A stretch of 64,000 nucleotides of DNA from Dorea sp. D27 (GTDB lineage Bacteria > Bacillota > Clostridia > Lachnospirales > Lachnospiraceae), in contig NZ_KQ236743.1 in assembly GCF_001185345.1 (NCBI RefSeq), positions 384,372-448,371 on the forward strand. Direction: 5' to 3'. Both the position numbers and the translations under genes were made by a program. The notes beneath the pieces were generated by a model. The model saw only the letters and a list, made by a program, of their open reading frames with translations. It was not told where the DNA came from and ran no database searches. This document shows, piece after piece, positions 13,949 to 43,728 of this stretch. Position 1 is the stretch's first letter. The number at the start of each line of letters is the position of its first letter.

Positions 13949-15598
13949 ATGAAAAAAGGGCAGGTATACGAAGGAACGATAGAATCAGTTGAATTCCCAA
14001 ACAAGGGGAAGGTATTCCTACCTGATGAAGATAAGACCGTCATAGTGAAAAACGGCATCCCGGGGCAGAAGGTGAAGTTCTCTGTCAACAAGATCCGCAA
14101 AGGAAAGGCAGAGGGCAGCATACTGGAAGTGCTCCGTCCGTCCGATGTGGAGATAGAGCCGGCCTGCACGCATTTCGGGCAGTGCGGCGGCTGCACGTAC
14201 CAGAACCTCCCCTATGAGGAGCAGCTGAAGCTGAAGGAGTCCCAGGTCAAGGCCATGATGGATGAGGCCGTGGACGGGGTCTACGTGTGGGAAGGAATCA
14301 AGCCGAGCCCTGCCCTGCAGGAGTACCGCAACAAGATGGAATTCTCCTTTGGGGATGAATATAAAGACGGCCCCCTGGCTCTTGGCATGCACAAAAGGGG
14401 CAGCTTTCACGACATTGTAAATGTGGAAGGCTGCAGGATTGTTGATGAAGACTACAGGAAGATACTGGCCTGCACGCTGGAATATGCGAGAAAGTCCGGC
14501 CTCCCTTATTACCACCGCATGAGACATACCGGATATTTCCGCCATCTGCTCGTAAGAAAGGCAGTAAAGACGGGGGAGATCCTTATCGATATCGTCACCA
14601 CTTCGGAATATGACTTTGACGGAAGCTTCCGCGGGGATAAGTGGGCAGACGAGCTGCTGGCCCTTCCGCTGGATGGAAAGATTGCCGGTATCCTCCACAC
14701 GAAGAATGACAGCGTGGCAGACGTGGTGAAAGACGAAGGGACAGATATCGTGTACGGCCAGGACTGCTTCTATGAAGAGCTTCTGGGGCTGAAATTCAAG
14801 ATTACGCCGTTCTCCTTTTTCCAGACGAACTCCCTCGGCGCGGAGGTGCTGTACGAGACGGTCCGAGCATATATCGGCGAGACGAAGGACAAGGTGATCT
14901 TCGACCTGTACAGCGGAACCGGGACGATAGCCCAGATACTTGCCCCGGTGGCAGAACGGGTGGTCGGCGTAGAGATAGTGGAGGAGGCCGTGGAGGCCGC
15001 AAAGGAGAATGCGGCGCTGAATGGCCTTGACAACTGCACGTTCTGGGCGGGGGATGTGTTGAAGGTAATCGACGGCCTTGGGGAAGTGCCGGACCTGATC
15101 GTGCTGGATCCGCCAAGGGATGGCGTGCACCCGAAAGCGCTGGAGAAGATTACGAACTTTGGCGTGGAGCGGATGGTGTATATTGCGTGTAAACCGACTA
15201 GCCTTGCGAGGGATCTGGAGATGCTGCAGGGGAGAGGGTATAAGGTGGAGCGGATGGCGTGTGTGGATCTGTTTCCGGGGACGGTGCATGTTGAGACGGT
15301 TGTTCTTTTGTCCCAACAAAAACCAGATGACACGATAGAGATCGACTTAGACCTGGACGAGCTGGATGCCACCAGTGCCGAGTTGAAAGCAACCTATCAG
15401 GAAATCAAAGATTATGTGCTGAAAGAATTTGGCTTGAAGGTTTCAAGTTTATATATTTCTCAGGTAAAACGCAAATGTGGAATTGAAGTGGGAGAAAACT
15501 ATAATCTTCCAAAATCAGAAAATGCAAGAGTTCCACAATGCCCGAAAGAGAAAGAAGATGCTATCAAGGCTGCCCTGAAATATTATGCGATGATCTAA
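13949..15598 (+). CDS. rlmD: 23S rRNA (uracil-5-)methyltransferase RlmD/TrmA family, with element-supplied C-terminal tail
   Basis: 549 residues. TRAM domain (1-60), [4Fe-4S] cysteines C-T-H-F-G-Q-C-G-G-C near residue 70, SAM-binding D-L-Y-S-G-T-G-T, V-L-D-P-P-R-D-G, and the nucleophile in I-A-C-K-P-T-S-L-A-R-D. It methylates a uracil in 23S rRNA. The canonical enzyme ends at about V-E-T-V-V-L-L-S (residue 453). The remaining ~95 residues lie beyond a recombination site at 15290-15303, have AT-rich codon use unlike the rest, and are homologous to the decayed tail at 43338-43655. I infer that the incoming element replaced the 3' end and kept the gene in frame. The extension is intact here, so the enzyme is probably functional. 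Confidence 0.92.
   Translation: MKKGQVYEGTIESVEFPNKGKVFLPDEDKTVIVKNGIPGQKVKFSVNKIRKGKAEGSILEVLRPSDVEIEPACTHFGQCGGCTYQNLPYEEQLKLKESQVKAMMDEAVDGVYVWEGIKPSPALQEYRNKMEFSFGDEYKDGPLALGMHKRGSFHDIVNVEGCRIVDEDYRKILACTLEYARKSGLPYYHRMRHTGYFRHLLVRKAVKTGEILIDIVTTSEYDFDGSFRGDKWADELLALPLDGKIAGILHTKNDSVADVVKDEGTDIVYGQDCFYEELLGLKFKITPFSFFQTNSLGAEVLYETVRAYIGETKDKVIFDLYSGTGTIAQILAPVAERVVGVEIVEEAVEAAKENAALNGLDNCTFWAGDVLKVIDGLGEVPDLIVLDPPRDGVHPKALEKITNFGVERMVYIACKPTSLARDLEMLQGRGYKVERMACVDLFPGTVHVETVVLLSQQKPDDTIEIDLDLDELDATSAELKATYQEIKDYVLKEFGLKVSSLYISQVKRKCGIEVGENYNLPKSENARVPQCPKEKEDAIKAALKYYAMI
15290..15303 (+). other. left attachment site (attL) within rlmD
   Basis: GTTGAGACGGTTGT encodes the V-E-T-V-V end of canonical RlmD. 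It matches the cores at 33233, 35342, 37049, 41173 and 43347 under the consensus GTKGARACNGNTNGT with one base of length play. Codon use changes from GC-rich to AT-rich right after it. Confidence 0.8.
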
Positions 15599-23274: not shown

Positions 23275-23278
23275 TAAA

Positions 23279-26212: not shown

Positions 26213-26299
26213 GTGGTTGTGAAACAACATAGGTTTTGGGCGTGGGCGTCCGTCTTTTGCTTTTTGATGGTATTCTATACAGGCTATAAACACAAATAA
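26213..26299 (+). CDS. 28-residue membrane peptide
   Basis: Below usual ORF cut-offs. A GTG at 26213 (or 26219) behind AAGGAAG gives a peptide with basic ends and one Trp/Phe-rich hydrophobic stretch (F-W-A-W-A-S-V-F-C-F-L-M-V-F-Y), ending T-G-Y-K-H-K. Position between the Fur-like and DUF6110 genes and the clear helix make it a plausible small membrane protein. Function unknown. Confidence 0.5.
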   Translation: MVVKQHRFWAWASVFCFLMVFYTGYKHK

Positions 26300-26315
26300 T
26301 CAGGAGGTACATAGG

Positions 26316-26618
26316 ATGTTTAGTGATTCTACTTTGAAAAAAATCGGATGTTTTGTAGGAGGAGTCGTATTTGGGACTGCGGGTGTAAAGCTCCTTTCCA
26401 GTAAGGACGCAAAAAAAGTATATACAAACTGCACTGCGGCTGTACTGCGGGCAAAAGACTGTGTTATGAAGACTGCTACAACAGTGCAGGAGAACGCAGA
26501 GGATATCCTTGCAGAAGCACAACAGATCAATGAAAAGCGTGCACAGGAAGAGGCAATGCAGGTGCAGGAAGATGATGTTCAGGAGGATGGTGCGTCTGAA
26601 CAGGAAGAAAACGAATAG
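26316..26618 (+). CDS. DUF6110-like membrane-associated protein
   Basis: 100 residues: a Gly-rich N-terminal hydrophobic stretch (I-G-C-F-V-G-G-V-V-F-G-T-A-G), an amphipathic middle and a Gln/Glu-rich acidic tail. Family assignment as DUF6110 is from memory of similar proteins preceding this class of P-type ATPase. AGGAGGTAC precedes the ATG. It lies 7 bp before the ATPase gene, so likely co-translated as an accessory. Confidence 0.65.
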   Translation: MFSDSTLKKIGCFVGGVVFGTAGVKLLSSKDAKKVYTNCTAAVLRAKDCVMKTATTVQENAEDILAEAQQINEKRAQEEAMQVQEDDVQEDGASEQEENE

Positions 26619-26625
26619 GTAAAAG

Positions 26626-28707: not shown

Positions 28708-28738
28708 TATAAAATATTCATATTGTTATAAGTTTTAA

Positions 28739-28773
28739 TGTCTGAATAGTTTGATTTGTAGACTATTCAGACA
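28739..28773. terminator. bidirectional intrinsic terminator
   Basis: TGTCTGAATAGT (28739-28750) pairs perfectly with ACTATTCAGACA (28762-28773), followed by T residues. Lies between convergent ATPase and STAND genes and overlaps the STAND stop. Confidence 0.8.
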
Positions 28774-31088: not shown

Positions 31089-31288
31089 ATAGAATCCCCT
31101 CCTGTTCTGTAAAATACTCAATTTCCGCTCAATCTATGCTCAATGAGTTTCTTATGAAATTCCATTAAACTGACATCAGGCTGAACGGAGTTGGTCTAAT
31201 AGAAATTATAGCACAAATTCCAGATCAGCTAAAGAGTACCGCCGAAAAATGCGTGGTGACAAGAAATATCGGTTTGGAAGGAGGAGCT

Positions 31289-31453
31289 ATGGCACACACA
31301 GTTGAATTTGAACGATGTGTTGATTTTCTTGCCAGAATGATAGAAAAATATGGCAGTGAGCTCCTTCAGGAACTGAATGGATTACCGAAGGAGGACAAAG
31401 CAGAAGATAACTGCCAGCAAGAGCAGCAACAGAATACATTGGGAAATGATTAG
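31289..31453 (+). CDS. small protein upstream of the serine recombinase
   Basis: 54 residues from ATG 31289 behind GGAAGGAGGAG. A helical segment (F-L-A-R-M-I-E-K-Y-G) is followed by an acidic/Gln-rich tail. Not recognised. Its size and position before the recombinase gene would suit a directionality factor or a small regulator, but nothing in the sequence proves it. Confidence 0.5.
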   Translation: MAHTVEFERCVDFLARMIEKYGSELLQELNGLPKEDKAEDNCQQEQQQNTLGND

Positions 31454-31591
31454 GGAGAGCATAGATGTTGGCTCTCTTTTTTCTTGCGTGATATTTGTGC
31501 ATTTTACCTATATTGACGAGTATGTGCAGCTACGGTAAAATATAGTTGGGACAAATAAAAAGTAAACTGTAATTTGGTATGGAGAATATAA

Positions 31592-33271
31592 ATGAAAAAG
31601 CGAAGATGTTATATATACACAAGGGTATCTACGTCTATGCAGGTAGAAGGATACAGCTTGGAAGCACAAAAAGAAAGATTGAGAAAATATGCAGATTTTC
31701 AGGAAATGGTGATTGTCGGAGAGTATTCGGATGAGGGAAAGTCAGGAAAAAGTATTGAAGGACGGCAGGAATTTATGCAAATGCTTCGGGATATTGAAGA
31801 AGGTAAAGATCGTGTAGAGTTTGTCTTGGTATATAAGTTATCCCGTTTTGGAAGAAATGCTGCAGATGTACTTAATTCTTTGCAGAGAATGCAGGATTTT
31901 GGAGTAAATTTGATCTGTGTTGAAGATGGTATAGACAGTTCTAAAGACAGCGGTAAGCTGATGATTTCTGTTCTGTCTGCGGTAGCAGAAATTGAACGTG
32001 AAAATATTCTGGTACAGACAATGGAGGGGCGCAGACAAAAGGCGAGAGATGGCAAATGGAACGGCGGATTTGCTCCGTACGGATATAAGCTGTTAAATGG
32101 AGAACTGGAAATTGCAGAAGATGAGGCAGAAATCATTCGTATTATTTTTGATAAATATATTCATACCAATATGGGAGTAAATGGCATTGCAGCCTATCTG
32201 AATGAGCATGGCTACAAGAAGAAAAAGAGACAGAATAATACGTTGGATGCGTTTGCTACTTCTTTTATAAAGGGTGTCCTTGATAATCCTATTTATTGTG
32301 GTAAATTGGCATTTGGAAGAAGGAAAACTGAAAGAGTGCCAGGCAAGAGAAATGAATTCCGTATTGTAAAGCAGGATTCTTATATATTAAGTGATGGTAT
32401 TCACGAAGCCATTATTTCCGAAGATGATTGGAACTTGGCAAAACAGAAACGAAATATAAATGGAGTAAAGCATGAGAAAATCCATAGTTTGGAGCATGAA
32501 CATATTTTGTCCGGAATTCTTAAATGTCCAATTTGTGGAAAGGGAATGTATGGAAATGTAAACCGTAAGAAGAAAAAAGACGGAACATTTTATAAGGATT
32601 ATTTTTATTATGCCTGCAAGCATAGGTATTATGTGAATGGTCATAAATGTGATTACCGGAAGCAGTGGAACGAAGAAAAAGTAAATGATGCGGTAGCAGA
32701 AGTTATTAAAAAGCTGGTGAATAATCCGAAATTTGAAGCCGCTATACGTGCAAAAATCAATTCTAAGATAGATACCGGAGAATTGGAAACAGAGCATGAG
32801 AACTTGAAAAAACAGCTGCGGCAAGTATTGGGAGCTAAAAATAGGTTAGGACAACAGATGGACAATCTGGATATTTCTGATAAAATGTATGACAGGAAGT
32901 ATCAGGATATGCAGGATCGGTTAAATGGTTTGTATGATGAGATTGAACGACTGGAAAGTCTGATCGATGATATAGTATCCAGAAAAGAGTATATCCGTCA
33001 GCAGAAAATTTCTGAGGATGGAGTGTATCAATATCTTTTGTACTTTGACAAACTGTATGATAAATTCACCGATATGGAGAAAAAAGAATTTATGAACAGT
33101 TTTGTTGAAAGAGTTGATATTTACGAGGATGAACAGCCGAACGGAAGATTTTTGAAGCATATAAAATTTAAGTTTCCGGTATTTTTTGACGGTGAAGAAA
33201 TTCAGGAACTTAGTTGGGACAACGAAACAACAGTTGAGACTGTCGTACTTCTGGAGCGGAAAGCCCAGTAA
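31592..33271 (+). CDS. large serine recombinase
   Basis: 559 residues. Resolvase-type catalytic domain (1-150) with the nucleophile Ser in Y-T-R-V-S-T-S and Arg pair in Y-K-L-S-R-F-G-R. Recombinase domain (about 165-290) with G-F-A-P-Y-G-Y. Zinc ribbon C-P-I-C-G-K-G-M-Y with later Cys pair, and a coiled coil (about 400-480). It integrates and excises DNA at att sites. Its final codons, T-T-V-E-T-V-V-L-L-E-R-K-A-Q, are themselves the att core that recurs through the cassette array. This is the only recombinase in the island. Confidence 0.93.
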   Translation: MKKRRCYIYTRVSTSMQVEGYSLEAQKERLRKYADFQEMVIVGEYSDEGKSGKSIEGRQEFMQMLRDIEEGKDRVEFVLVYKLSRFGRNAADVLNSLQRMQDFGVNLICVEDGIDSSKDSGKLMISVLSAVAEIERENILVQTMEGRRQKARDGKWNGGFAPYGYKLLNGELEIAEDEAEIIRIIFDKYIHTNMGVNGIAAYLNEHGYKKKKRQNNTLDAFATSFIKGVLDNPIYCGKLAFGRRKTERVPGKRNEFRIVKQDSYILSDGIHEAIISEDDWNLAKQKRNINGVKHEKIHSLEHEHILSGILKCPICGKGMYGNVNRKKKKDGTFYKDYFYYACKHRYYVNGHKCDYRKQWNEEKVNDAVAEVIKKLVNNPKFEAAIRAKINSKIDTGELETEHENLKKQLRQVLGAKNRLGQQMDNLDISDKMYDRKYQDMQDRLNGLYDEIERLESLIDDIVSRKEYIRQQKISEDGVYQYLLYFDKLYDKFTDMEKKEFMNSFVERVDIYEDEQPNGRFLKHIKFKFPVFFDGEEIQELSWDNETTVETVVLLERKAQ

Positions 33272-33387
33272 ATTAAAGGGTTTCGGGGGTTTTAGTGGAA
33301 TACGAAGGTGTGCTTTTTGGGTGTTTTGAGCTAGATATGTTTCCTGTTACTGGGACGGGGTAAGGAAAATGAACGTTTTGGCAAAAG
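33233..33387 (+). repeat. attachment site A: element right end and first right half-site
   Basis: Core GTTGAGACTGTCGT (33233-33246) inside the recombinase gene, then a 155-bp unit running through CCCAGTAAATTAAAGGG to GAACGTTTTGGCAAAAG. The same unit recurs at 35342 and 41173. This copy lacks the 31-bp left half found at the other sites; its left flank is the recombinase gene. Confidence 0.85.
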
Positions 33388-33561
33388 GTTTAGATTCTGT
33401 AGATGAAGATAATTATTAATGGAATTGATGACTATTATGTTTATAATAGAAGTTGGTAGTTTTTTGTTATAGCAATAATAGATAGTTTGGATTAGAGTGA
33501 TTAACTCAAAGTGTTTGATTAAATAAAGTTTATATAATACAAAAGAATTGAGGGAGAATTT

Positions 33562-35043
33562 ATGAATTTACTGGAGCAGATAGAAAATTTTGGTGCAATT
33601 GATGCAGAAAATGATGAACGACTAATTGAATATTTTTACCATACTGAAATAATTGATGAATTGCTGAATTATAAAAAATCAATAATTATAGGTCGCAAAG
33701 GTTCTGGCAAAACGGCCATTTATAAATACATTTTAGATTTTAAGAAAGGATTATGTTGTCCTCTGCTATTTAAAGACTATCCTTGGAAAGCTCATGACAG
33801 ATATAAAAATAATATTGTTTCAGAAAGGGAAAGTTATGTAAATTCATGGACATTCTTCTTTTATATAGAAATATTTAAAAAGTTAATTGAGTTAAAAAAA
33901 TCCATACTAAATCCTCAAAAGCGTAAAGCTATTAAAAAATTAGAGAAATGGCTTAAGAAAAATTGGGGTGGAATAGAGTTTGATCATAATGAAATAATGT
34001 CTCCTAATAAAACTAAATTTTCTTTCTCATTTGCCCCTCAGATATTAGGGAATAGTTTAGGATCAATATCCAAAGATATACTTGAAAAAGATAACGTTGG
34101 TTCTACTCTAACAGAATATAATAAAAAATTTGAAGCAATAACGATGGAATTGTTAAGCGATTTTAGTAGCGAAATAATATTACTATTTGACGAGTTAGAC
34201 TTAGCATATTCACCAAATGATTTGAATTACAAGAACAGGTTGATTGGTCTTTTACTTACCGTATATAATTTTTACAATAAATTTACAAAAATAAAAGTTT
34301 TTGTTTTTTTGAGGAATGATATTTTTAATATTCTAGAATTTCAGGACAAAAATAAGGTAAAAGATAATCTAGTCGAATTTCTTGATTGGGATAGTTTGTC
34401 TTCTGATTCGTTGTTGAGTTTAAAGAGTTTAGTCTCGAATAGAATAAAGAATAATATTAATTCTCAGTCTGACAATTTTGAACGGAATTGGAATCAGGTT
34501 TTTGAAAGTAACAATATTGGAAAGAATCAACTTAAATGGAATTTCGTTATTGATAGGACATTTTTAAGACCAAGAGACATAATTAAGTTTATGAACTTAT
34601 CACTACAGCAAGCAAAGTTAAGATTGAAAAATAATCCTGATACGCTAGATAAGATTACAAATGATGATATTCATGCTATAAGATCCCAATATTCTACTTA
34701 TCTATTTGAAGAATTAAATGATGAAGTTATTAGTAAATATCCAAACTATAATAACTATATAGAGATTCTCAGAGATTTACATAAAATGACATTCACAAGG
34801 GAGGAGTTTTCAATAAGTCTTGATAATTTAAAAGATAAGTTATCAATTAAAGATAATATTGATACTATAATGGCACGCTTATATGAGTTTAGTATTATTG
34901 GATTTTATAAAGCAGGAGGCGGTGGATATGGAGGGTCAGTATATAGGTTTCAATACAAATCAGATTTCCAGGCTTTTAATACGCGTTCGCAAAAATACAG
35001 AGTGCACTACGGATTCAAGGAATACTTAGAATTGATAGAATAA
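33562..35043 (+). CDS. cassette 1: P-loop ATPase, Sll1717-like
   Basis: 493 residues. Walker A G-R-K-G-S-G-K-T (about residue 45) and Walker B I-L-L-F-D-E-L-D (about 215) with R-N-D-I-F and F-L-R-P-R-D-I further on, the pattern of the Sll1717-family STAND-like P-loop ATPases. C-terminus is a winged-helix-like region with a Gly-rich loop (G-G-G-G-Y-G-G). No nuclease or membrane domain is seen. Such ATPases are common in antiphage islands, and the neighbouring cassettes are defence-like; function is inferred from this. Very AT-rich. AGGGAGAA precedes the ATG. Confidence 0.75.
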   Translation: MNLLEQIENFGAIDAENDERLIEYFYHTEIIDELLNYKKSIIIGRKGSGKTAIYKYILDFKKGLCCPLLFKDYPWKAHDRYKNNIVSERESYVNSWTFFFYIEIFKKLIELKKSILNPQKRKAIKKLEKWLKKNWGGIEFDHNEIMSPNKTKFSFSFAPQILGNSLGSISKDILEKDNVGSTLTEYNKKFEAITMELLSDFSSEIILLFDELDLAYSPNDLNYKNRLIGLLLTVYNFYNKFTKIKVFVFLRNDIFNILEFQDKNKVKDNLVEFLDWDSLSSDSLLSLKSLVSNRIKNNINSQSDNFERNWNQVFESNNIGKNQLKWNFVIDRTFLRPRDIIKFMNLSLQQAKLRLKNNPDTLDKITNDDIHAIRSQYSTYLFEELNDEVISKYPNYNNYIEILRDLHKMTFTREEFSISLDNLKDKLSIKDNIDTIMARLYEFSIIGFYKAGGGGYGGSVYRFQYKSDFQAFNTRSQKYRVHYGFKEYLELIE

Positions 35044-35310
35044 TATAATGATATTTTGTATTACAAGAAGTTTTTAAGAAATTGAAATGACTATATACGC
35101 TATCATATATTGGTATTAATGAGCTTAGTGATGTAAATTAGCCACTGGGGCAAGTGAAAATAGGATTTCAAATGAAATTTCTAAAGAACTGAAAAAGAAT
35201 CTACCGACAATTGAAGATATAGAGAAAATGGCTAATCTTTAAAATTTCGAAACGAAGTGTTGTATAGTTGGGATTTGAATTAAGTCAAGGAGGTAAGAAT
35301 ACATTTTTGA

Positions 35311-35497
35311 CATGTAGTATAAAAATCAACTCTCACCGCATGTGGAAACCGTGGTTCTGCTGGAGAAGAATGGCTAGGAAATCAAAGGGTTTCGGGGATT
35401 TGAGGAGGATATGTAGGTGTGCTTTTGCGGTTGATTTTGGTGAAATATGTTTCCGATGACCGTGGTGGGGTAAGGGAAATGAACGTTTTGGCAAAAG
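35311..35497 (+). repeat. attachment site B between cassettes 1 and 2
   Basis: Left half from CATGTAGTATAAAA at 35311, core GTGGAAACCGTGGT at 35342, right unit to 35497. Reads in one frame as Y-K-N-Q-L-S-P-H-V-E-T-V-V-L-L-E-K-N-G-stop, a relic of an RlmD C-terminus. The rest of the 515-bp gap (35044-35558) shows only gene remnants. Confidence 0.85.
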
Positions 35498-35558
35498 ATG
35501 AAGTCTCTATTTTTATTAAAGAACCTATAAAAAAGTTAATATTTTAAAGGAGAAAAGA

Positions 35559-36950
35559 ATGAATTATTCAGAAACAAATTTAAATGAAGAAGAAGTGGCA
35601 AAAGTACTTTCATATCAAGAAAATCATTTTCTTGATATGAAAAGTAAGAGGATAAAACCAGCAAAATTGAGTGAAAATGTCTCTTCTTTTGCAAATACTA
35701 GTGGTGGAGATATTTATGTAGGTATAGAAGAGAAAAAAATAAAAGAGTTATCTTATTTTTCGTGGGAAGGATTTAACAATATAGAAGAAACAAATGCTAT
35801 TATACAGATGTTGGAGAATTTAGCTCCACTTGCGAATTTCTATGATATTTCGTTTCTTAAACATCCAAAGTTAGGCAGTTATGTTATGCAAATAACCATA
35901 TTTAAAACACAGGCAGTTATTTTTAGTACTAGCGGAATGGCATATGTTAGGAAAGGGGCTCAAAAGCTACCTATTAATACGTCCGAGAAATTGAAGCGAT
36001 TAGAATTGGATAAAGGTATTGTACAATTTGAAAATGAGATTATAAATGAAAGTTCATGTGAAGACATTTTAGAATCGGATATATATATGAAATTTATGGA
36101 TTCAGTGGTTCCAAATGTTGAGGGTGAAAAATGGTTGAAAAAGCAGAAACTAATACGAGATAATAAAATAATAGTTGCTGGTATATTGCTATTTAACGAA
36201 GAACCTCAAGTGCTTTTACCGAAAAGATCGGCTATTAAAATATTTAGATATAAAACTTCAGGTATTGCTGATAGAGATATGCTTGAGGGGCAACCTCTTA
36301 CAATTGAGGGATGTTTGTATGATCAAATTTATGGTGCAGTAAACACGACTAAAAAAATAATTGAGTCTATGAAAAAGTTGGGGGATAAATTTGAAAATGT
36401 TAATTATCCAGAAGAAACATTGCATGAAATAATAACTAATGCAGTTATACATAGAGACTATAGTATTATTACTGATATACAAATCAGAATATTTGATAAT
36501 AGAATTGAAGTGGAAAGCCCAGGGAAATTACCTGGACACGTAACTGTAAAAAATATTTTGGATGAACAATCGGCGAGAAATCCTAAAATTGTACGTCTTA
36601 TAAATAAATTTCCCAATGCTCCTAATAAAGATGTTGGCGAAGGTCTGAATACTGCATTTGAGGCAATGACAAAATTACGACTTCGAACTCCTATTATAAA
36701 TGAGATGAATAACACTGTGATGGTGGAGATAAGACATGAAAGGTTAGCATCACCTGAAGAAATGGTAACAGAGTATATGCAGACGCATGATGAAATTACT
36801 AATAGAGAGGGAAGACTTTTGACAGGAATAAAATCTGAAAATACAATGAAAAGAGTTTTTTGGAAATTAAGAGATAGAAAAATGTTAGAGCCTGTTCCAG
36901 GGAAACAAGGACCAGCATTTGCATGGCGAACACCAAAAGATATTGATTAG
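35559..36950 (+). CDS. cassette 2: AlbA_2-domain protein with HATPase-like C-terminal region
   Basis: 463 residues. N-terminal AlbA_2 (Schlafen-like, formerly AAA_4) domain: F-L-D-M-K-S-K-R then S-F-A-N-T-S-G-G-D-I-Y-V-G. Middle region L-H-E-I-I-T-N-A-V-I-H-R-D-Y-S with N-R-I-E-V-E-S-P-G-K-L is the HATPase_c_4 block of RecG-like putative regulators. A C-terminal winged helix follows. AlbA_2 proteins are nucleic-acid-binding regulators or defence components, and Schlafen-type domains can be nucleases. The exact activity is unknown. AAAGGAGAAA precedes the ATG. Confidence 0.8.
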   Translation: MNYSETNLNEEEVAKVLSYQENHFLDMKSKRIKPAKLSENVSSFANTSGGDIYVGIEEKKIKELSYFSWEGFNNIEETNAIIQMLENLAPLANFYDISFLKHPKLGSYVMQITIFKTQAVIFSTSGMAYVRKGAQKLPINTSEKLKRLELDKGIVQFENEIINESSCEDILESDIYMKFMDSVVPNVEGEKWLKKQKLIRDNKIIVAGILLFNEEPQVLLPKRSAIKIFRYKTSGIADRDMLEGQPLTIEGCLYDQIYGAVNTTKKIIESMKKLGDKFENVNYPEETLHEIITNAVIHRDYSIITDIQIRIFDNRIEVESPGKLPGHVTVKNILDEQSARNPKIVRLINKFPNAPNKDVGEGLNTAFEAMTKLRLRTPIINEMNNTVMVEIRHERLASPEEMVTEYMQTHDEITNREGRLLTGIKSENTMKRVFWKLRDRKMLEPVPGKQGPAFAWRTPKDID

Positions 36951-37017
36951 TATAAGATATGTTTATAATGGGATTGAGAATAATGGAATTGATCTGTCAC
37001 TGGTTTTGCAATTTTGC

Positions 37018-37110
37018 TATGTGGTATAAGAAATACCTTTCACCGCACGTGGAGACCGCTTGCCTTCTCGTGCGGAAACCTTGATTCCAGGCGGGGTTGC
37101 GGGATTTTTA
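37018..37110 (+). repeat. attachment site C between cassettes 2 and 3 (diverged right half)
   Basis: Left half TATGTGGTATAAG from 37018, core GTGGAGACCGCTT at 37049. Reads M-W-Y-K-K-Y-L-S-P-H-V-E-T-A-C-L-L-V-R-K-P-stop with no internal stop, unlike B, D and E. The sequence after it (to about 37210) is more GC-rich and no longer matches the shared 155-bp unit except for GGCAAAAG motifs. Confidence 0.75.
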
Positions 37111-37213
37111 GCGGGAAATGGAGTTGTGTTTTTGTGGATGGTGAGATGGATAAGTTTTCGCAGATAGGGGGACGGGGATAACGCCGGAGAGTTTGAAAAT
37201 GAGGGTTTTGTCG

Positions 37214-37295
37214 GGCAAAAGATACAATTCGGCAAAACCCTTACTATTTGGCAAAAGTGGATACAATCTGGCAAAAGATATACTCTGCGGCAAAA
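37214..37295 (+). repeat. five GGCAAAA motifs at about 19-bp spacing
   Basis: GGCAAAA starts at 37214, 37231, 37250, 37270 and 37289 (spacing 17, 19, 20, 19). GATACAAT recurs between them. Sites A, B and D each keep one copy at the end of the right unit. The regular spacing suggests repeated protein binding upstream of the RT genes. Confidence 0.6.
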
Positions 37296-37424
37296 CGCTT
37301 ATAAAGTCATTTGAAAGCACATTATCAAAAGGATTAGCTTTGAAATAGTGGTTTATGAATAAGAAGTGTGATAAAATAAAAGCATTATATATTCTGAAAT
37401 AAATGGACAAAGGAAGAAAATACT

Positions 37425-38741
37425 ATGGAAAAAATAATAGGTCAGATTGTTCGAAATAGTGATTTTCAATTAGGTGAAGATGAAATAAAAGAGAAAGTTA
37501 AACATTATATAGATGAAATAAAAGAAAAAAGATATGATTTTTCTAGTTCTTCTAAGGAAATATATACTCAAGGAAAGAAGAAAAGGGTTATCTACAGTTT
37601 TAATTCGGATAGTACAGAAAGTGTTATATGTAAGTATTTAAAAAAAAGATTGGATTATACTTTTCATATAAAATATCCAAGCAGGAATAAAATTATCAAT
37701 TCTTTGTTTTCTATATTGCCAGTTATAAAGGATTTAAATGATTTTGTTATTATACGAGCTGATTTCAAAAGCTTTTTTGATAGTATTATTGCTAAATATA
37801 TCTATGTTCAGTATTTAGAACAGTCAGCATTATCAAGAAAAGACAAACGACTCTTTGAGGAATATGTAGAAAATTTTAAATATTGCTATGCCGGTTTGTG
37901 TTTGTCTAATGTTATGACAGAAATAGTATGTCGGGACTTTGATAAAAATTTAAGAGCGAAATTAGAAACATATGGGGTTGTGTACTGCGAACGATATGTT
38001 GATGATATACTAATTATATTGAATAGTTATATTTCAGATGAAGATGTTAAGAAGCTAATATATGAATCAATTAGTGAGATATTTGGGAACTGTCCAGTGA
38101 GATTAAATGAAAGAAAGTATAGATATATTTGCAAGCGTGGAATAAGTTCATCGCAGGAATTTGATTTTCTAGGATATAATTTTACAATGAATTATAACAC
38201 AGCTACGAAGAAATTATCATTTTTATTTGGTATCACTGAGAAGAAAAGACAGAAGTATTATAATAGATTTAAAAAAGTGTTTTGTGAATATGCGAAAGAT
38301 CACAATCTGGAATTGTTTCGTCAAAGAATAAAAATTTTGTCAACTCGTGTGGTGATTACTAAAGAGTTAGGTAGAGAATCATTTCAATGGGTTACAAAAG
38401 GAGTTATAGCAAATTATAATGAATTGAGAAATTATTTGGATTATTTAGATAGCAATACTGAACAATTTTTGAAAAATGTATATTTAAATTTGATAACAGA
38501 AACAGGAATAGCTATGCCAGGCTTTTTTGCTGATTCTTTAATAGGTGAAAGTGTTTATAATTTATTTTCTACATTAAAGAGAAATAGAAGCACTATTTAT
38601 GATAATAGGATTGGCATTAAATTAAACGATTTAGTTAGTATGATAAAGAAGATAAATCCCAGTTATTATTGTGGGACAAAGAATTATTTGCAAATTGTGT
38701 ACGAGTATTTAGAATTGCTTAAAATAGAACAACGCTATTAG
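37425..38741 (+). CDS. cassette 3: reverse transcriptase 1 (DRT3a/UG3-like)
   Basis: 438 residues. RT motifs: A, R-A-D-F-K-S-F-F-D-S-I (about residue 108); B, Y-A-G-L-C-L-S-N; C, C-E-R-Y-V-D-D-I with both catalytic Asp. No maturase, endonuclease or retron-type thumb is recognised. Not a group II intron protein. Size and pairing with a second, larger RT match DRT type 3 defence, in which two unrelated-group RTs (UG3, UG8) act with a non-coding RNA. Its stop codon lies inside a hairpin (CGCTATTAG/CTAATAGCG). AAAGGAAG precedes the ATG. Confidence 0.8.
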   Translation: MEKIIGQIVRNSDFQLGEDEIKEKVKHYIDEIKEKRYDFSSSSKEIYTQGKKKRVIYSFNSDSTESVICKYLKKRLDYTFHIKYPSRNKIINSLFSILPVIKDLNDFVIIRADFKSFFDSIIAKYIYVQYLEQSALSRKDKRLFEEYVENFKYCYAGLCLSNVMTEIVCRDFDKNLRAKLETYGVVYCERYVDDILIILNSYISDEDVKKLIYESISEIFGNCPVRLNERKYRYICKRGISSSQEFDFLGYNFTMNYNTATKKLSFLFGITEKKRQKYYNRFKKVFCEYAKDHNLELFRQRIKILSTRVVITKELGRESFQWVTKGVIANYNELRNYLDYLDSNTEQFLKNVYLNLITETGIAMPGFFADSLIGESVYNLFSTLKRNRSTIYDNRIGIKLNDLVSMIKKINPSYYCGTKNYLQIVYEYLELLKIEQRY

Positions 38742-38928
38742 TTAGACTAATAGCGCTATTCCTCAGTGCAACATAACTTTTTCCAAAAGGAAAAGCAACC
38801 CTGCAATGCTAACGTGTGCAACATATGGCTCTATCGCATTATGTACGGAGTGCATTTGCAATAGACATATGAAACTTTGGTGTAATACCACCATATAGAT
38901 ATTATGTACAATTTTGGAGGAAAAGTCA
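38733..38928 (+). ncRNA. candidate structured RNA between the two RT genes
   Basis: No ORF. Hairpins in order: CGCTATTAG (from about 38733, overlapping the stop) with CTAATAGCG; TTTTCC/GGAAAA near 38780-38797; and a longer bulged stem near 38822-38873 in which CATATG, TCTAT and GC pair with GC, ATAGA and CATATG. In the characterised DRT3 systems the RT pair needs a ncRNA, so this is the natural place to look. No obvious (AC)n or (GT)n template stretch is seen beyond GTGTG. Confidence 0.45.
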
Positions 38929-40989
38929 ATGGGGCTAAACAATATAAAAAGAAATAGTCTGGATTATATTTTGTCAGATTTGCTACCTGTCGAGTTACCA
39001 GAATTATATACCCATAAATATTTTTATGAGTATTTGATTCAGCATAATAAAGAGGTTCAGAAAATTATAGAAAAGATGACAGCCAATAAGAATGATATTG
39101 CGTCAAGTAAAAAAATGTTTGAAGCTCCAGGATGGATTTCTATGCCATTAAAATATACTATAGCTAAGAACTTAGAGGCTGATAGAGAATTAAATATTAT
39201 TCAGCCAATAGCTATATTGGAGTTATTTTTGTTTGTAACGATATATCAGAAAGAAATTCTTAATTACATGGAAAAAAATAGTGCTTTTTCCTTACGGTAT
39301 CATAGAAAAAATAATGATCTATACTATAAACAAAGAACAAAATCGCTTACGAAATATTTTGATGAAACATCCAAAACAGTAGGTAAGTCTGTTTTACAGC
39401 AAACAGGGGTATACTTTGACATAGGGCCTTTTCAATCAATTTCATCTTTTACTAAATCTGATTTATGGTTTGCATTAAATAGAAAGTATCAATATTTTGC
39501 CAGAACAGATTTTAAATCATGTTTTGATAGTGTATATACCCATACATTTAAGTGGCTAATTGGAAAAGATGTTAATGATACTAAAGATTTTACGAATGTT
39601 AATATATTTACGACTATTGATAGAATATTACAAAATATAAATGCACGAACATCCAATGGTATAATAATCGGGCCTGAATTTTCAAGAATGATAGCGGAAA
39701 TTTTGTTAGAAGGCATAGATACCACAGTTATGAATTCGCTGTATGTAGAAGGATATAAAAAGGATGTAGAATATGTAGTGCTTAGATATGTTGATGATAT
39801 ATTTATATTTGGCGAATCGGAAATGTTAATAGATATTATTTTGAAGCGCTATGAAGAAGTAGCAAGAAAATATATGTTAAGTTTAAATGAGGCAAAGTTA
39901 ACAAAAGAAAAAATACCATTTGTGCTTGATGTATGGTTAAAGGAAACCAGTCTATTTGTTACTCAAACCAGTAATGTTTTATTTTATACTGAGGATGAAA
40001 GAAAGCTATATATAGATAAAAAGAAACAGGAGTTGCAGGAAAATGCTTCACATGAAAATAGTGAGGATACAGTTGTCCCTCATATGTTTAAAGCTAGGGT
40101 ATTTCGTGGACTAAAACCTACATTGATGACAAAATTTAATGAATTAATATGTTACTATCCTAAAAAGACAAAAACTATAGTGTCTTATACCTTTGGTATG
40201 GTGATAAATAAAATTGAGCGAAGTAGGAATAAGTCAAGAATATTCAGGCAAAATGTTTCTCCTAATACTATATATTCTTTTTTGGACTATATTTTTTATG
40301 TGTATTCATTTTATACGGATTTTATGAACACACAGAGATTACTATCTGTTATTAGCTATATAAATGACGAAACGGAATTTTTAGATTCGACAGATGTATT
40401 TCAGAAACTAATATCTAAATATGCTGTTGTATTTGAGAAATCTAATATAAATGATGTGGTAAATCTAATTTTACTTTGTTCAGAAAAAGGGATAGAAATA
40501 CCGTATAGACAAGAATGTAAAATTGAAGAAAAGATTAAAAAGGAAGATAATCCTATACTATTTGCTACATACTTAATATATGCAAAATATGATTCGATTT
40601 ATTTTGAAAAAATATTGAATGAAATTGAGAAAATTTTAGAACTTAAATTGGATGCTATATTAAAAAAAGATAACATACTTACATACAGAGAATTTTGGTG
40701 GATTATAATTTTCAATAAATGCCCCTTTATTAAAGGAGCATTGCAAAATAAGTTTGATATACTAATTGCCAATAGATTTTCATTAACAGTTACTGATTCC
40801 TCAAATGCAGTTAATATTTGTACACATCTTTTAGGGGATTTTTTCTTGAACAGTAGCAAACAATTTTTCGAATGGGATATATCAAGGAGAAGTTTTCTTA
40901 AGGAAATTACGTTTAAAACATATGAAAGAAGTGTATTTAAGAATTACAAATTCAATTATAATTTTATGGAGTTTAATAGTTTGGAGTGA
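38929..40989 (+). CDS. cassette 3: reverse transcriptase 2 (DRT3b/UG8-like)
   Basis: 686 residues from ATG 38929 behind TTGGAGGAAAA. RT motifs: A, A-R-T-D-F-K-S-C-F-D-S-V (about residue 195); B, G-I-I-I-G-P-E-F-S-R-M-I-A-E; C, L-R-Y-V-D-D-I-F-I-F. The remaining ~400 C-terminal residues are helical, without recognised nuclease or toxin motifs, like the long C-terminal extension of UG8 proteins. Same strand as RT1, 187 bp apart. I infer antiphage DNA synthesis by an RT pair; phage targets cannot be told. Confidence 0.78.
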   Translation: MGLNNIKRNSLDYILSDLLPVELPELYTHKYFYEYLIQHNKEVQKIIEKMTANKNDIASSKKMFEAPGWISMPLKYTIAKNLEADRELNIIQPIAILELFLFVTIYQKEILNYMEKNSAFSLRYHRKNNDLYYKQRTKSLTKYFDETSKTVGKSVLQQTGVYFDIGPFQSISSFTKSDLWFALNRKYQYFARTDFKSCFDSVYTHTFKWLIGKDVNDTKDFTNVNIFTTIDRILQNINARTSNGIIIGPEFSRMIAEILLEGIDTTVMNSLYVEGYKKDVEYVVLRYVDDIFIFGESEMLIDIILKRYEEVARKYMLSLNEAKLTKEKIPFVLDVWLKETSLFVTQTSNVLFYTEDERKLYIDKKKQELQENASHENSEDTVVPHMFKARVFRGLKPTLMTKFNELICYYPKKTKTIVSYTFGMVINKIERSRNKSRIFRQNVSPNTIYSFLDYIFYVYSFYTDFMNTQRLLSVISYINDETEFLDSTDVFQKLISKYAVVFEKSNINDVVNLILLCSEKGIEIPYRQECKIEEKIKKEDNPILFATYLIYAKYDSIYFEKILNEIEKILELKLDAILKKDNILTYREFWWIIIFNKCPFIKGALQNKFDILIANRFSLTVTDSSNAVNICTHLLGDFFLNSSKQFFEWDISRRSFLKEITFKTYERSVFKNYKFNYNFMEFNSLE

Positions 40990-41028
40990 GAAATTGTTAT
41001 TTATTAATTTACTTTAGACTAAATGAAG

Positions 41029-41096
41029 AGGGGTAAATATCTCAAAAAGGGTAAAAGGGGTGAAAAGATATAAAAAGGGGTAAGAGGGGTAAAAAT
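41029..41096 (+). repeat. five AGGGGTAA-type direct repeats after RT2
   Basis: GGGGTAAA at 41030, GGGTAAA at 41049, GGGGTGAA at 41057, GGGGTAAG at 41077 and GGGGTAAA at 41086, separated by A-rich spacers. No stem. Lies between RT2 and site D, in a 470-bp gap otherwise without a gene. Confidence 0.6.
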
Positions 41097-41141
41097 CCAA
41101 ACTTGGCACTCTATAACAAAACGAAGGGGAGAACCTTTTGC

Positions 41142-41326
41142 CATGTAGTATAAAAGACAACTTTCACCGCATGTTGAAACCGTCGTGCTTCTGGCACGAA
41201 AAGCCCAGTAAATCAAAGGGTTTCGGGGTTTTTCTTGAAATGTGTAGGTGTGCTTTTGGGGTGTTTTGAGTAAAATATGTTTCCTATTACTGGGGTGGGG
41301 AAGGAAAATGAACGTTTTGGCAAAAG
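41142..41326 (+). repeat. attachment site D between cassettes 3 and 4
   Basis: Left half CATGTAGTATAAAAG at 41142, core GTTGAAACCGTCGT at 41173, right unit to 41326 ending GGCAAAAG. Frame reads L-S-P-H-V-E-T-V-V-L-L-A-R-K-A-Q-stop. The right unit is closest to that of site A. Confidence 0.85.
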
Positions 41327-41460
41327 AGAAAATGAATGCAATTACGGAAACGATTGGAAAAAGTCGCTGCGTGGGGATTAACTTAAGCTAGAGTTTATTT
41401 GATAAGATATAGAAGTGAAGCAATAAAAGAATATAATATTGTATAAGAAGGGTGGAGCGT

Positions 41461-42309
41461 ATGCCTGTTATTGGAGATTCATCAGCAATTTTGGAATTTG
41501 AAAAAATGCTTCCTCAACATCAAGCAGCTATTACATTAATGAATTCTGTACTACAGAATCCGTTAGTAGATAAAGTTAATTGGCTAGATTTAGCATGTGG
41601 AAAAGGACAGATAATTTCTCAGCTAAATGAAAATTTAACATTAGAAAATAGAAAGAAAATTACTTATTATGGCTATGATATAAATGTTGATTACACTAAG
41701 ATAGTGAGTAAAATAGCCGATAATCTCAACTTTATGGATTATGTCATACATATTGGAGATTTGTCATCATTTGATAATATCTTACCAAAGGACTTAAAGT
41801 TTGATTTTATAACTTGTACAAATGTAACTCATGAAATTCATCCACAGAAATTTTTAGAAATAATACTTGGAGTAATAAAGAGACTCAATGCATATGGGCA
41901 GTTATTTCTTTATGATATGGAATCTTTATCAAATCCAGAATTAGGAGCATTGCCCCTAAAAGCGAGTGATATAAAAAGACTAGTTGAAACAATTTTAAGA
42001 GTGGCAGGAAGTGATTTTAAAGTATGTCCATCTACATGGTCACATAGAACATGTAAAGGATGGTCGCTCGTTATTAATCGCAATTATTTAGGAGTTAGTA
42101 ATGATAATTTTGTGAAATCTACTACAAAAATTTTAGATGCCCTTCATAATGAAATAGGTATGATGTTAAATATGAAGTTAACTGAATGCAAACAGGTACT
42201 AGATACATTTACATCATATGGAACAGAAACAAGTGATGAAGAAGAACAAAAGATGACATCTCTGTACGAATTTTGGTCTTTACATAAAGCATTGGAGGAT
42301 TTGATATGA
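41461..42309 (+). CDS. cassette 4: class I SAM-dependent methyltransferase
   Basis: 282 residues from ATG 41461 (AAGGGTGGAG upstream). SAM motif I W-L-D-L-A-C-G-K-G (about residue 45), then Y-G-Y-D-I-N and I-T-C-T-N-V-T-H-E-I as the later motifs. No DNA target-recognition domain is seen and there is no N-P-P-Y or D-P-P-Y motif, so it is not a typical DNA-adenine enzyme. C-terminal ~90 residues are helical and unassigned. It overlaps the TIR/Mrr gene by ATGA, so the two are made together. Role in the pair (regulator, tRNA/nucleotide modifier or self-protection) is unknown. Confidence 0.75.
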   Translation: MPVIGDSSAILEFEKMLPQHQAAITLMNSVLQNPLVDKVNWLDLACGKGQIISQLNENLTLENRKKITYYGYDINVDYTKIVSKIADNLNFMDYVIHIGDLSSFDNILPKDLKFDFITCTNVTHEIHPQKFLEIILGVIKRLNAYGQLFLYDMESLSNPELGALPLKASDIKRLVETILRVAGSDFKVCPSTWSHRTCKGWSLVINRNYLGVSNDNFVKSTTKILDALHNEIGMMLNMKLTECKQVLDTFTSYGTETSDEEEQKMTSLYEFWSLHKALEDLI

Positions 42310-43136
42310 GTTCTGTTTTTATTTCTTATTCATACGCAGATATATTAGCAAGAAATATCGTAGAAGGTTTGAAAAAATCAACTATAGAAAATCTTGCTAT
42401 ACTAACAACATACCAAGGGATTGGAGGTAATAATCCAGAAACACAATTATTTGACGCTATTAGAAAATGTGATTATTTTGTTTGTATATTTGATAATTAT
42501 AGTCCGAATGTTATGCTTGAATTAGGATATGCATTGGGGAGAAATAAGAATATTATTTTGGTTGGAGATTATAATGAGATCCCTTTTGATTTGCGAAACT
42601 TTGACTATATAAAGAGGAATGAAAATATAAGTGATGTATTAATGGAATTGAACAAACGGATATATTCCAGCGAGATATTACCCAAAGAAGTTATTTGTTA
42701 TAAAGATTATAAAGAAAATATTTTACATGCTTTGAACGAACAAGAATTTTTAGATGGTTTGAGTTATAGAGATTTTGAAGAATTGATTTATGAATATTTA
42801 AAAGCACAAAACTTGCCTGTAAATTATCAACCATTAACCAGAGATAGAGGATACCATTTTTTACTTCCAACAATGAATTGTATCATTGAAATAAAGAAAT
42901 ATAGTAAAAATAATAAAATATCGTTATCTGTGATTAGAGCATTGTTAGGAACAATGGTTGAAAACAATATGAGCAAAGGAATTATAATTTCAAGCTCTGG
43001 TTTTACACAATCAGCAATAAATTTTGTTCAAAACTTAAAACAGAAGATAGTATTGTTATCACTGGATGATTTGTTAAAGATTGATGGTAATTTTGTTTCT
43101 TTTATAATGAGGGAATATGAAAATCAACCTTTTTGA
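42306..43136 (+). CDS. cassette 4: TIR-like domain fused to Mrr-like endonuclease domain
   Basis: 276 residues. N-terminal TIR-like domain (1-125): V-F-I-S-Y-S-Y-A-D and the N-V-M-L-E-L-G-Y-A-L-G block, whose Glu is the catalytic position in TIR NADases and related folds. C-terminal domain (about 150-265) resembles Mrr/restriction endonuclease type IV: D-F-E-E-L-I-Y-E-Y-L, then I-I-E-I-K-K as the E-x-K half of a PD-(D/E)xK site; the usual preceding Asp appears to be His or is displaced. The fusion suggests a sensor/effector of antiphage immunity with NAD or DNA as target. It starts within the methyltransferase stop. Confidence 0.75.
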   Translation: MSSVFISYSYADILARNIVEGLKKSTIENLAILTTYQGIGGNNPETQLFDAIRKCDYFVCIFDNYSPNVMLELGYALGRNKNIILVGDYNEIPFDLRNFDYIKRNENISDVLMELNKRIYSSEILPKEVICYKDYKENILHALNEQEFLDGLSYRDFEELIYEYLKAQNLPVNYQPLTRDRGYHFLLPTMNCIIEIKKYSKNNKISLSVIRALLGTMVENNMSKGIIISSSGFTQSAINFVQNLKQKIVLLSLDDLLKIDGNFVSFIMREYENQPF

Positions 43137-43315
43137 TAATTATCTAATATAGTTATTAATCATCATAGTATATATAAAGTGGATGAGAGCATTTCAACGA
43201 TTTCTATTCTGATAGAAAGGGGTTTAATGCTATAAACATTAAATGCGGCGACTGTTATAGTTCTAGCCAGGAGAATAGGCAAATAAATGTTGATGAGGTA
43301 AGTTTATACTTATAC

Positions 43316-43360
43316 CATGTAGTATAAGACTTCGGTCTCACCGCACGTGGAGACGGTTGT
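43316..43360 (+). repeat. attachment site E: array right end, joined to old rlmD tail
   Basis: Left half CATGTAGTATAAGAC at 43316, core GTGGAGACGGTTGT at 43347. Unlike B-D, the right side is not the 155-bp unit but continues in frame into an rlmD tail. This makes it the junction with the original target. Confidence 0.82.
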
Positions 43361-43655
43361 CAAATTATCCATCAAAAGAGATACACCGAAAATTGAGGTT
43401 GCAATACAACCATCCAATGTGAGTAATTACACGCCAGAGGAAAAGGCTACTTATTTAAATATCTAGCAGTATATCAAGGATAGATATAGCGTGAATGTGC
43501 ATACCAGTTATATTGCCCAGGTTAAGCGGATGTGTAGGCTTGATGTGGGTGAGAACTATAATAAATCTAAGAAGGAAAAAGCAGATGTGAAGCAGTGTCC
43601 GCCGGAGAAGATGGAATATATCAAAGATTCGCTGAAATATTTTAAACTTTTGTAA
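43338..43655 (+). pseudogene. displaced rlmD C-terminal tail, decayed
   Basis: Reads S-P-H-V-E-T-V-V-K-L-S-I-K-R-D and on through a ~100-codon tail homologous to the extension of intact rlmD (shared V-G-E-N-Y-N, C-P-x-E-K, S-L-K-Y-F). One TAG interrupts it at about codon 41. No start codon. I infer this was the 3' end of rlmD before cassettes and element inserted, then decayed once replaced. Confidence 0.85.
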
Positions 43656-43728
43656 GAAGCATATATGTGTAAAGAATTAGAAGATAGTAGAAACGATATA
43701 GAATTAAGAAATTATGGAGGATCAAATA

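What the first reader, a model, noticed from the sequence alone, without database searches (positions are those of the whole stretch)
33233..43360. Integron-like array of defence cassettes built on rlmD-derived serine-recombinase sites
Five sites (33233, 35342, 37049, 41173, 43347) share the core GTKGARACNGT. B-E carry a left half whose CATGTAGTATAA-type start lies exactly 31 bp before the core each time. A, B and D carry a right unit of 155, 156 and 154 bp ending GGCAAAAG. Each cassette is thus right-half, cargo, left-half, so a circular cassette would recreate the same full site. None encodes a recombinase, but the single large serine recombinase at 31592 ends in the same site. Integrons do this with tyrosine integrases; a serine-recombinase version dedicated to defence genes at rlmD is not something I know described.
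Basis: partly seen in the sequence, partly recalled or inferred. Interest (0 to 1): 0.95.

Follow-up and report, generated by a model that had tools for sequence, protein, structure and literature searches.

The report
Stacked defence cassettes at rlmD
In this gut bacterium four groups of mostly defence-like genes sit in a row between copies of one DNA joint, a layout that recurs with other cargo in related species, and each group was likely inserted there as a small removable cassette by a phage-type serine recombinase.

Summary
The four intervals hold no recombinase; they carry an ATPase, an AlbA/HATPase protein, DRT3, and a methyltransferase plus TIR-Mrr pair. The P half occurs in 13 of 397 family genomes and 37 stretches of public genomes. 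By one rule 22 recombinase-less cassettes in 15 genomes pass, anchored at rlmD homologues, a serine integrase gene's end or another element. A 99.8%-identical region in two genera stays identical up to the core and diverges inside it, so the core marks the crossover.

The LSR at 31592 is a described type (rumA-specific integrase with its attachment site inside its own gene) with different end halves. A 48.8-kb prophage with three tandem recombinases (R1-R2-R3), related to streptococcal 'rum' prophages, has both cassette end types. I read this as site-specific stacking at rlmD of minimal, mostly defence-carrying, non-autonomous elements: integron-like in working, nearest to CIMEs, pseudo-SCC and streptococcal rum tandems. 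Not shown: circles, the acting enzyme, defence function. New variant of a known kind.

The parts
13949..15598 (+). intact rlmD (23S rRNA m5U methyltransferase) with C-terminal extension; core HVETVVLL at 15287-15310
   Evidence: Pfam tRNA_U5-meth_tr; core score 32.4; the name rlmD is by homology and recalled
31592..33271 (+). single large serine recombinase (LSRw); its 3' end is the left side of site A
   Evidence: Pfam Resolvase, Recombinase, Zn_ribbon_recom; homologues in 64 of 397 family genomes, ends read in 30
33230..33387 (+). site A: core plus right unit P' type 1
33562..35043 (+). cassette 1 cargo: ATPase-like protein (P-loop read by eye)
   Evidence: only a weak PADLOC match, PDC-M28C 3.9e-8; no Pfam match
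35301..35338 (+). left half P of site B (TAGTATAA at 35315)
35339..35497 (+). site B: core plus P' type 1
35559..36950 (+). cassette 2 cargo: AlbA_2/HATPase_c_4 protein (Schlafen-type)
37009..37045 (+). left half P of site C
37046..37230 (+). site C: core plus P' type 2; GGCAAAA repeated here and just beyond
37425..38741 (+). cassette 3 cargo: Drt3a reverse transcriptase
   Evidence: PADLOC 2.3e-48
38914..40989 (+). cassette 3 cargo: Drt3b reverse transcriptase
   Evidence: PADLOC 5.8e-121
41133..41169 (+). left half P of site D
41170..41326 (+). site D: core plus P' type 1
41452..42309 (+). cassette 4 cargo: methyltransferase-domain protein
   Evidence: Pfam Methyltransf_31
42306..43136 (+). 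cassette 4 cargo: TIR plus Mrr nuclease protein
   Evidence: Pfam Mrr_cat 9.3e-15, TIR_2 1.8e-6
43307..43343 (+). left half P of site E
43344..43652 (+). site E core plus decayed rlmD-type C-terminal extension (B'): right end of the array
   Evidence: tblastn 44%, 5e-22; frame stop after 40 codons

Best explanation
The stretch 33233-43347 holds four cassettes without a recombinase gene, each carrying the same two kinds of attachment half-site around mostly defence-like genes, and they were likely stacked one after another at an rlmD-type attachment site by serine recombinases of the tandem R1-R2-R3 family that rum-type prophages carry. Shown: each cassette reads P'-cargo-P; the same anatomy with other cargo recurs in other genomes; in the best pair, near-identical DNA from two genera stays identical up to the core and diverges inside it; a 48.8-kb prophage with R1-R2-R3 has the P right end and a T2-like P' left end. 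Inferred: each cassette excises or arrives as a circle with a P|P' site; R2 and R3, possibly helped by R1 (a catalytic domain without the usual serine), would join it in trans to the core of a free or occupied rlmD-type site; the rlmD extension or the next P' stays on the right, so a core is kept and the array can grow. The LSR at 31592 used the same target and supplies the left anchor, but is likely not the cassettes' own enzyme.
For: Core and half-sites. P half: 13 of 397 family genomes, own included, reversed-pattern control 0 in the listed rows; 37 stretches in genome contigs. 22 of 37 core-to-core intervals listed pass the cassette rule (P' left, P right, under 5 kb, no recombinase match), in 15 genomes; L096 has two in a row between an rlmD homologue and its extension. 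P lies 24 bp before the core in 14 of 14 sites that were found without fixing that gap. Crossover: L088 vs L104 99.8% and 100% identical over -600..-100 and -100..-4, then 71% in the core and 69% after. Same cargo with T2 in L096 and a T1-like unit in L108: 81.6% over 2025 nt starting just after P'. Trio link: R2 (1e-120) in 5 of 397, 4 with P sites, hypergeometric 3.4e-6; LSRw 64 of 397, 4 with P sites, 0.14. G421 prophage: left core 5405835 with T2-like unit (z 7.5), R2 at 5444992, P core 5454664, with portal, major head and tape-measure proteins inside. R2 or R3 matches in 4 of 6 viral contigs that hold a P site. R2 relatives (about 50%) in streptococcal phages, several named _rum, order hydrolase-R2-R3.
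Against: No circle, excision or in vitro recombination was observed. Of 34 genomes with the site, 10 have no R2 match at 1e-60 and 9 more only weak ones (1e-65 to 1e-84, other recombinases or R3), so 19 of 34 lack a close R2 in the held assembly, among them a complete chromosome with two cassettes (G407). Several trios are broken: two stops in R2 of G426, R2 of G408 starts at residue 96. In the window's genome R1 is cut by a stop and R2/R3 are one 460-aa open chimera. Only one intact trio element (G421) was shown with both ends; G426 and G408 have both with damaged trios; the G416 trio element has a T2 left end but no P-like right half at the next core found. In other pairs identity already falls in the P half (83-90%), and L105/L107 shows no sharp step. 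No P|P' match in the phage or plasmid collections. The trio statistics rest on 5 genomes. Cassettes could be leftovers of decayed prophages.
Confidence: 0.68

Rival explanations
1. The LSR at 31592 is the cassettes' integrase: a one-enzyme, integron-like platform whose 3' end is the insertion site.
For: Its gene ends exactly in site A; in L098 a 99% identical LSR (residues 336-558 compared) is followed by a different right unit (T2), and a 59% homologue in L104 by a T1-like unit, so elements do insert at its end.
Against: Its left half is the coding 3' end, unlike the cassette P half, and 9 of 30 homologues read continue into an rlmD-type extension unlike T1/T2. No co-occurrence with P sites beyond chance. 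The window genome's other array starts at an rlmD paralogue instead (L123). Its arrangement is the one described for rumA integrases.
Confidence: 0.15
2. Each cassette is the decayed remnant of a rum-type prophage or ICE that integrated in tandem and then lost all but its ends and defence genes (CIME by decay); nothing moves now.
For: Trio elements carry defence-like genes just inside the P end: a QatA-led four-gene block in L104, alike at 99.8% in L088, 98.9% in L108 and 80% in L110, so deletion would leave P'-defence-P. Some elements keep recombinase scraps (L101, L108 second, L114).
Against: The window cassettes leave only about 60-260 bp between end units and genes, and the only other non-overlapping frame of 80 aa or more is one of 100 aa; several precise losses in one array is uneconomical; the minimal form recurs in 15 genomes.
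Confidence: 0.3
3. Cassettes spread mainly by homologous recombination between arrays, with the cores as landmarks only.
For: The DUF1016 gene is shared (78-93% nt) by five cassettes with different first genes.
Against: In L088/L104 identity drops within the 24-bp core, not at some other point.
Confidence: 0.12

Closest known systems
CIMEs (cis-mobilizable elements) and tandem accretion at ICE/IME sites
   Same: integrase-less segments with att ends stacked beside elements that use the same target (PMC5704250, passages)
   Different: described there as decay products of ICEs or IMEs; here 0.8-4.1 kb units with standard end units, up to four in a row, mostly defence-like cargo
Stacking at the rum locus in streptococci: rumA-specific single serine integrases and the Phi-m46.1 prophage group
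   Same: same target gene, serine recombinases, attR inside the single integrase gene, ICE-prophage tandems (PMC4701971, PMC5053989, passages); phages named _rum with tandem recombinases
   Different: large ICEs and prophages; recombinase-less cassette arrays do not appear in the passages seen; other hosts
SCC / pseudo-SCC and Enterococcus cassette chromosome
   Same: serine recombinases at the 3' end of an rRNA methyltransferase gene, multiple attR sites (16 of 32 ECCs), restriction genes among the cargo (PMC6222049, passages)
   Different: rlmH and ccrAB, other att sequence; ECCs are 21-78 kb; arrays of one-system cassettes do not appear in the passages seen
Integrons (recalled)
   Same: array of same-strand cassettes with recurrent sites and exchanged cargo
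   Different: tyrosine integrase and attC there; here serine-recombinase half-sites, a long P' unit in each cassette, no dedicated platform shown

Membership tests
Integron | IntI tyrosine integrase next to attI | tested here: not met
   the neighbouring recombinase and the trio are serine recombinases; none of the 10 window proteins searched matches a tyrosine recombinase
Integron | attC sites that fold as single strands | not tested
   no folding of the sites was run
CIME / integrase-less accreted element | no integrase gene inside | tested here: met
   window four by Pfam and by tblastn with four recombinases; for the other 18 it is part of the selection rule
CIME / integrase-less accreted element | bounded by att sites shared with an autonomous element at the same target | tested here: met
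   P and a T2-like P' bound the G421 prophage at rlmD
CIME / integrase-less accreted element | mobilised in cis or trans | not testable with these tools
   needs excision assay or reads
SCC/ECC | insertion at rlmH with ccr genes | tested here: not met
   anchors found are rlmD homologues and LSR ends; the recombinases were not compared with Ccr
rumA-specific single serine integrase (for the LSR at 31592) | attR inside the integrase gene, 3' parts of integrase and target exchanged | tested here: met
   homologues run to a VETVVLL-like end, then rlmD-type extension (9 of 30) or another unit; description
Phi-m46.1 / rum prophage group (for the trio elements) | tandem serine recombinases after a cell wall hydrolase, insertion at rum | tested here: met
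   endolysin/amidase then recombinases in L088, L105, L111; G421 prophage at rlmD; R2 about 50% to phages named _rum. No comparison with Phi-m46.1 itself was made

The most novel reading that the evidence does not exclude
A serine-recombinase counterpart of the integron: free-standing P'-defence-P cassettes that move as circles in trans, are captured and restacked at rlmD by a three-part recombinase (two active subunits and one without its catalytic serine) shared with prophages, and so give gut Lachnospiraceae an exchangeable stock of single defence systems.
Probability: 0.35. Interest if true: 0.85.

Novelty: new variant of a known kind. Interest (0 to 1): 0.62.

Why it matters
If the cassettes move, defence systems can be traded one at a time at a conserved housekeeping gene, and the half-site pattern becomes a cheap probe for new defence genes; four of the 22 cassettes hold proteins with no family match at all. 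It would also suggest how defence islands grow in gut bacteria without transposases, and give a concrete assay for a multi-subunit serine integrase whose smallest member lacks the usual serine.

Tried and rejected
Rejected: one recent tandem duplication (B and D right units 63% and 82% like A, cargo unrelated). Rejected: LSR at 31592 as sole engine. Considered: the right unit as promoter or terminator carrier; the consensus scan of 33200-43700 gave 76 promoter-like sites against 61.8 expected and 3 terminator-like against 3.1, so nothing can be said. Looked for a P|P' site (site D, 201 bp) in the phage and plasmid collections: no match. Paper searches for a described serine integron or rlmD cassette array showed none in their listings (open-access library only; of listed papers I saw titles and abstract starts, and passages of four).

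Results that weaken the picture: P-to-core spacing of 24 in 47 of 47 is partly by construction, since fixed the gap; 14 of 14 sites found without it agree, but several of those are close relatives. The forward excess of cores (86 against 4 reverse at threshold 10) is inflated because loci were oriented by the P site. PADLOC gave hits in 3 of 10 control proteins of the window, all generic, one of 76.6 bits, so that score alone does not prove defence. Right-unit types other than T1/T2 follow some cores (L172, L111, L109, L101, L115: z up to 1.7). Intervals not counted: L101, L114 and L108 second (recombinase match), L094 (same build, 9.8 kb), L111 (9.0 kb, recombinases), L112, L115, L099, L119, L120, L092 (an end missing). 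L098 was not in that list because its LSR end is not listed as a core at the thresholds used.

Changed after re-checking: confidence of the best explanation from 0.70 to 0.68, because 19 rather than 10 of 34 genomes lack a close R2 and only one intact trio element shows both ends.
Full report
What is in the window. Five copies of a core lie at 33230 (A), 35339 (B), 37046 (C), 41170 (D) and 43344 (E), counted from the first base of CAYGT or its counterpart. B-E have a left half, called P here: about TTTYGCYATKTAGTATAA, 11 variable bases, CACCG, then the core. E is followed by a decayed copy of the C-terminal extension that the intact rlmD at 13949-15598 carries (44% identity; stop after 40 codons). 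The left side of A is the 3' end of a large serine recombinase gene (LSRw, 31592-33271).

Cargo of the four intervals. Cassette 1: an ATPase-like protein with only a weak PADLOC match. Cassette 2: AlbA_2 plus HATPase_c_4. Cassette 3: both DRT3 reverse transcriptases (2.3e-48 and 5.8e-121). Cassette 4: a methyltransferase-domain protein and a TIR plus Mrr-nuclease protein. All are on the + strand, with about 60-260 bp between end units and genes; the only other non-overlapping frame of 80 aa or more is one of 100 aa.

The same ends elsewhere. The P pattern with up to 2 mismatches was found in 13 of 397 family genomes, own included; the reversed control gave 0 in the listed rows. An exact degenerate pattern gave 37 stretches in genome contigs, whose titles name Lachnospiraceae or genera that I recall as belonging there, one only 'Clostridiales', and 6 in viral contigs. 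Of 33 genomes reached through these loci 29 have one site at up to 3 mismatches, three have two and one has three. I fetched up to 20 kb around the sites and mapped rlmD, its extension, LSRw and the right units. The recurrent order is anchor, P', cargo, P, [P', cargo, P], then the extension or another element; the anchor is an rlmD homologue (30-67% identical), an LSRw end, or the P of another element. L096 shows two cassettes between an rlmD homologue and the extension. The window's genome has a second array on contig C4, from an rlmD paralogue (L123 4332-5606) to an extension copy (L021 14639), with recombinase remains and two cassettes.

Counting cassettes. Rule: left core followed by a short P' (stop within 8-16 codons), right core preceded by P, under 5 kb, no match to R1, R2, R3 or LSRw. 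Of the 37 core-to-core intervals that one search lists, 22 pass, in 15 genomes (six of the 22 in the window's own). Main genes run in the rlmD direction in 21 of 22; the exception is a DUF4238 gene in L021. By match, 13 of 22 have a PADLOC score of 70 bits or more or a Pfam nuclease domain: window cassettes 2-4, five with DUF1016/YhcG (L021, L095, L096, L106, L113), two with SEC-C/DUF6602 (L096, L108), L102 (type I methylase-specificity fusion plus Mrr_N/HNH), L103 (SMEK/REase) and L175 (Mrr_cat plus a Shedu fragment). The other nine: L086 has a DEAD/ResIII helicase with a weak PADLOC hit, and L089, not searched itself, is 93% alike in DNA; window cassette 1 and the L021 DUF4238 gene are weak; L121 has only helix-turn-helix matches; L085, L087, L091 and L168 have none. 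Of 10 control proteins of the window 3 gave PADLOC hits up to 76.6 bits, all generic. So cargo is mostly, not only, defence-like, and defence itself is untested.

Evidence that the core is a crossover. L088 and L104, from Blautia glucerasea and Lachnoclostridium sp. An138 by record title, are 99.8% identical over 6072 nt. They are 100% identical in the last 100 bp before the core, 71% in the core and 69% in the next 100 bp. L086/L089, L092/L098 and L021/L096 are also high left of the site and low right of it, but their identity already falls to 83-87% in the P half; L105/L107 shows no sharp step. An LSRw 99% identical over its last 223 residues is followed by T2 in L098 where the window has T1. 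The SEC-C/DUF6602 cargo has T2 in L096 and a T1-like unit in L108, and the similarity starts just after P'.

Which recombinase. LSRw homologues (E up to 1e-100) are in 64 of 397 family genomes. I read the ends of 30: L141 is cut by its contig; the others run to a VETVVLL-like end or a variant of it, and 9 of 30 go on into an rlmD-type extension that BLAST recognises. This is what Ambroset and colleagues describe for streptococcal rumA integrases: repeats in rumA and in the integrase gene, reciprocal exchange of 3' parts (PMC4701971, passages). The cassette P half is different. It is the right end of elements with adjacent recombinase genes R1 (159 aa), R2 (425), R3 (468), beside a phage-type amidase or endolysin in L088, L105 and L111, with mostly defence-like genes between R3 and P. 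R2 and R3 have Resolvase, Recombinase and zinc-ribbon domains; R1 only the Resolvase domain. In 8 of 8 loci where I could read that part of R1 the RVS of R2/R3 is replaced (RMN, RVN or RTT; in L103 the frame starts at MNH); that this serine is the catalytic one is recalled. R2 at 1e-120 is in 5 of 397 genomes, 4 with P sites (0.16 expected, 3.4e-6); LSRw shares 4 of 64 (2.1 expected, 0.14). The trio's left end is T1/T2-like: G421 z 7.5 against T2, G426 6.0, G416 19.0, G408 5.6 against T1; three random stretches gave -1.4 to 0.1. The G421 element runs 48.8 kb from rlmD (core 5405835) to P (5454664), R2 at 5444992, with no core above score 12 in between, and holds portal, major head, tape-measure and helicase proteins: a prophage with both cassette end types. 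R2 or R3 matches in 4 of the 6 viral contigs with a P site. R2 is about 50% identical to recombinases of streptococcal phages, several named _rum; in phi-SsuSSJ27_rum the order is hydrolase, R2, R3, other genes. The rum locus is a known hotspot for ICEs, Phi-m46.1-group prophages and their tandems (PMC5053989, passages).

Against this. Of 34 genomes with P sites 15 have a close R2 (1e-97 or better), 9 only weak matches and 10 none at 1e-60, including a complete chromosome with two cassettes. Several trios are damaged (G426, G408). In the window's genome R1 is cut by a stop and R2/R3 are one open 460-aa chimera. The G416 trio element has no P-like right half at the next core found. The phage and plasmid collections gave no P|P' match. 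No excision data exist here.

Mechanism I commit to. A P'-cargo-P circle carries a P|P' site; R2/R3, encoded by a resident or incoming prophage, join it to a core that is free (rlmD) or already occupied (right end of LSRw or of a cassette). P' supplies a short in-frame end (such as LLERKAQ-stop) to rlmD or to the LSR, and the displaced extension stays at the far right. The anatomy, the recurrence and, in the best pair, the crossover position are shown; the circle, the enzyme and trans action are inferred.

Known or new. Accretion of integrase-less segments (CIME; PMC5704250, passages), serine-recombinase cassettes at an rRNA methyltransferase gene with several attR sites and restriction genes (ECC; PMC6222049, passages) and stacking at rum are known. 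What my searches did not show is a family of minimal, standard-ended, mostly defence-carrying cassettes in arrays of up to four at rlmD. I file it as a new variant of a known kind.

Unexplained. The P' unit is about 155 bp, long for a serine-integrase half-site (recalled). 40 of 47 P halves have TTTYGCY just outside (0.31 expected) and 21 of 53 P' units have GGYRAAA at +100 to +210 (3.2 expected): inverted outer motifs whose role I cannot name.

Noticed in passing
L094 (G418:C67:86300-106299), oriented 126-9952: A 9.8-kb element with the same P' and P build carries a MecA_N-type penicillin-binding protein and a BlaR1-like gene with a transpeptidase domain, beside a small gene that looks by eye like its repressor: an SCCmec-like layout at rlmD-type sites; L168 has a similar-looking PBP right after a P' unit.
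   Followed up: partly
window 57963-60068: A PBP-like gene that by eye resembles the L094 and L168 ones lies further right in the window, outside any core pair found.
   Followed up: no
window 43714-45483: A GmrSD-family protein (PADLOC HEC-05, 1.1e-224) sits just right of the array, after the extension remnant, with no further core in the window.
   Followed up: partly
window 15287-33233: Between the rlmD core and site A lie, by eye, a relaxase-like gene (16079-17869), replication-type genes, a FeoB-like and a P-type-ATPase-like gene, then LSRw: perhaps an integrated mobilisable element with LSRw at its right end.
   Followed up: no
L099 (G415:C3:90000-109999), oriented 492, 4779, 7242, 9988: Four successive cores; three are followed by an rlmD-type extension that BLAST recognises and the fourth by a similar-looking one with a stop, so extension-bearing elements seem to stack too.
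   Followed up: no
L021 13277-13996 and L089 10852-11709: The same DUF4238 gene region (95% nt) lies in opposite orientation between similar ends in two genomes.
   Followed up: partly
R1 genes, e.g. L105:16427-16903 (-): A resolvase-domain protein without the usual serine precedes the two full recombinases in 8 of 8 trios where it could be read; role unknown, perhaps directionality.
   Followed up: partly
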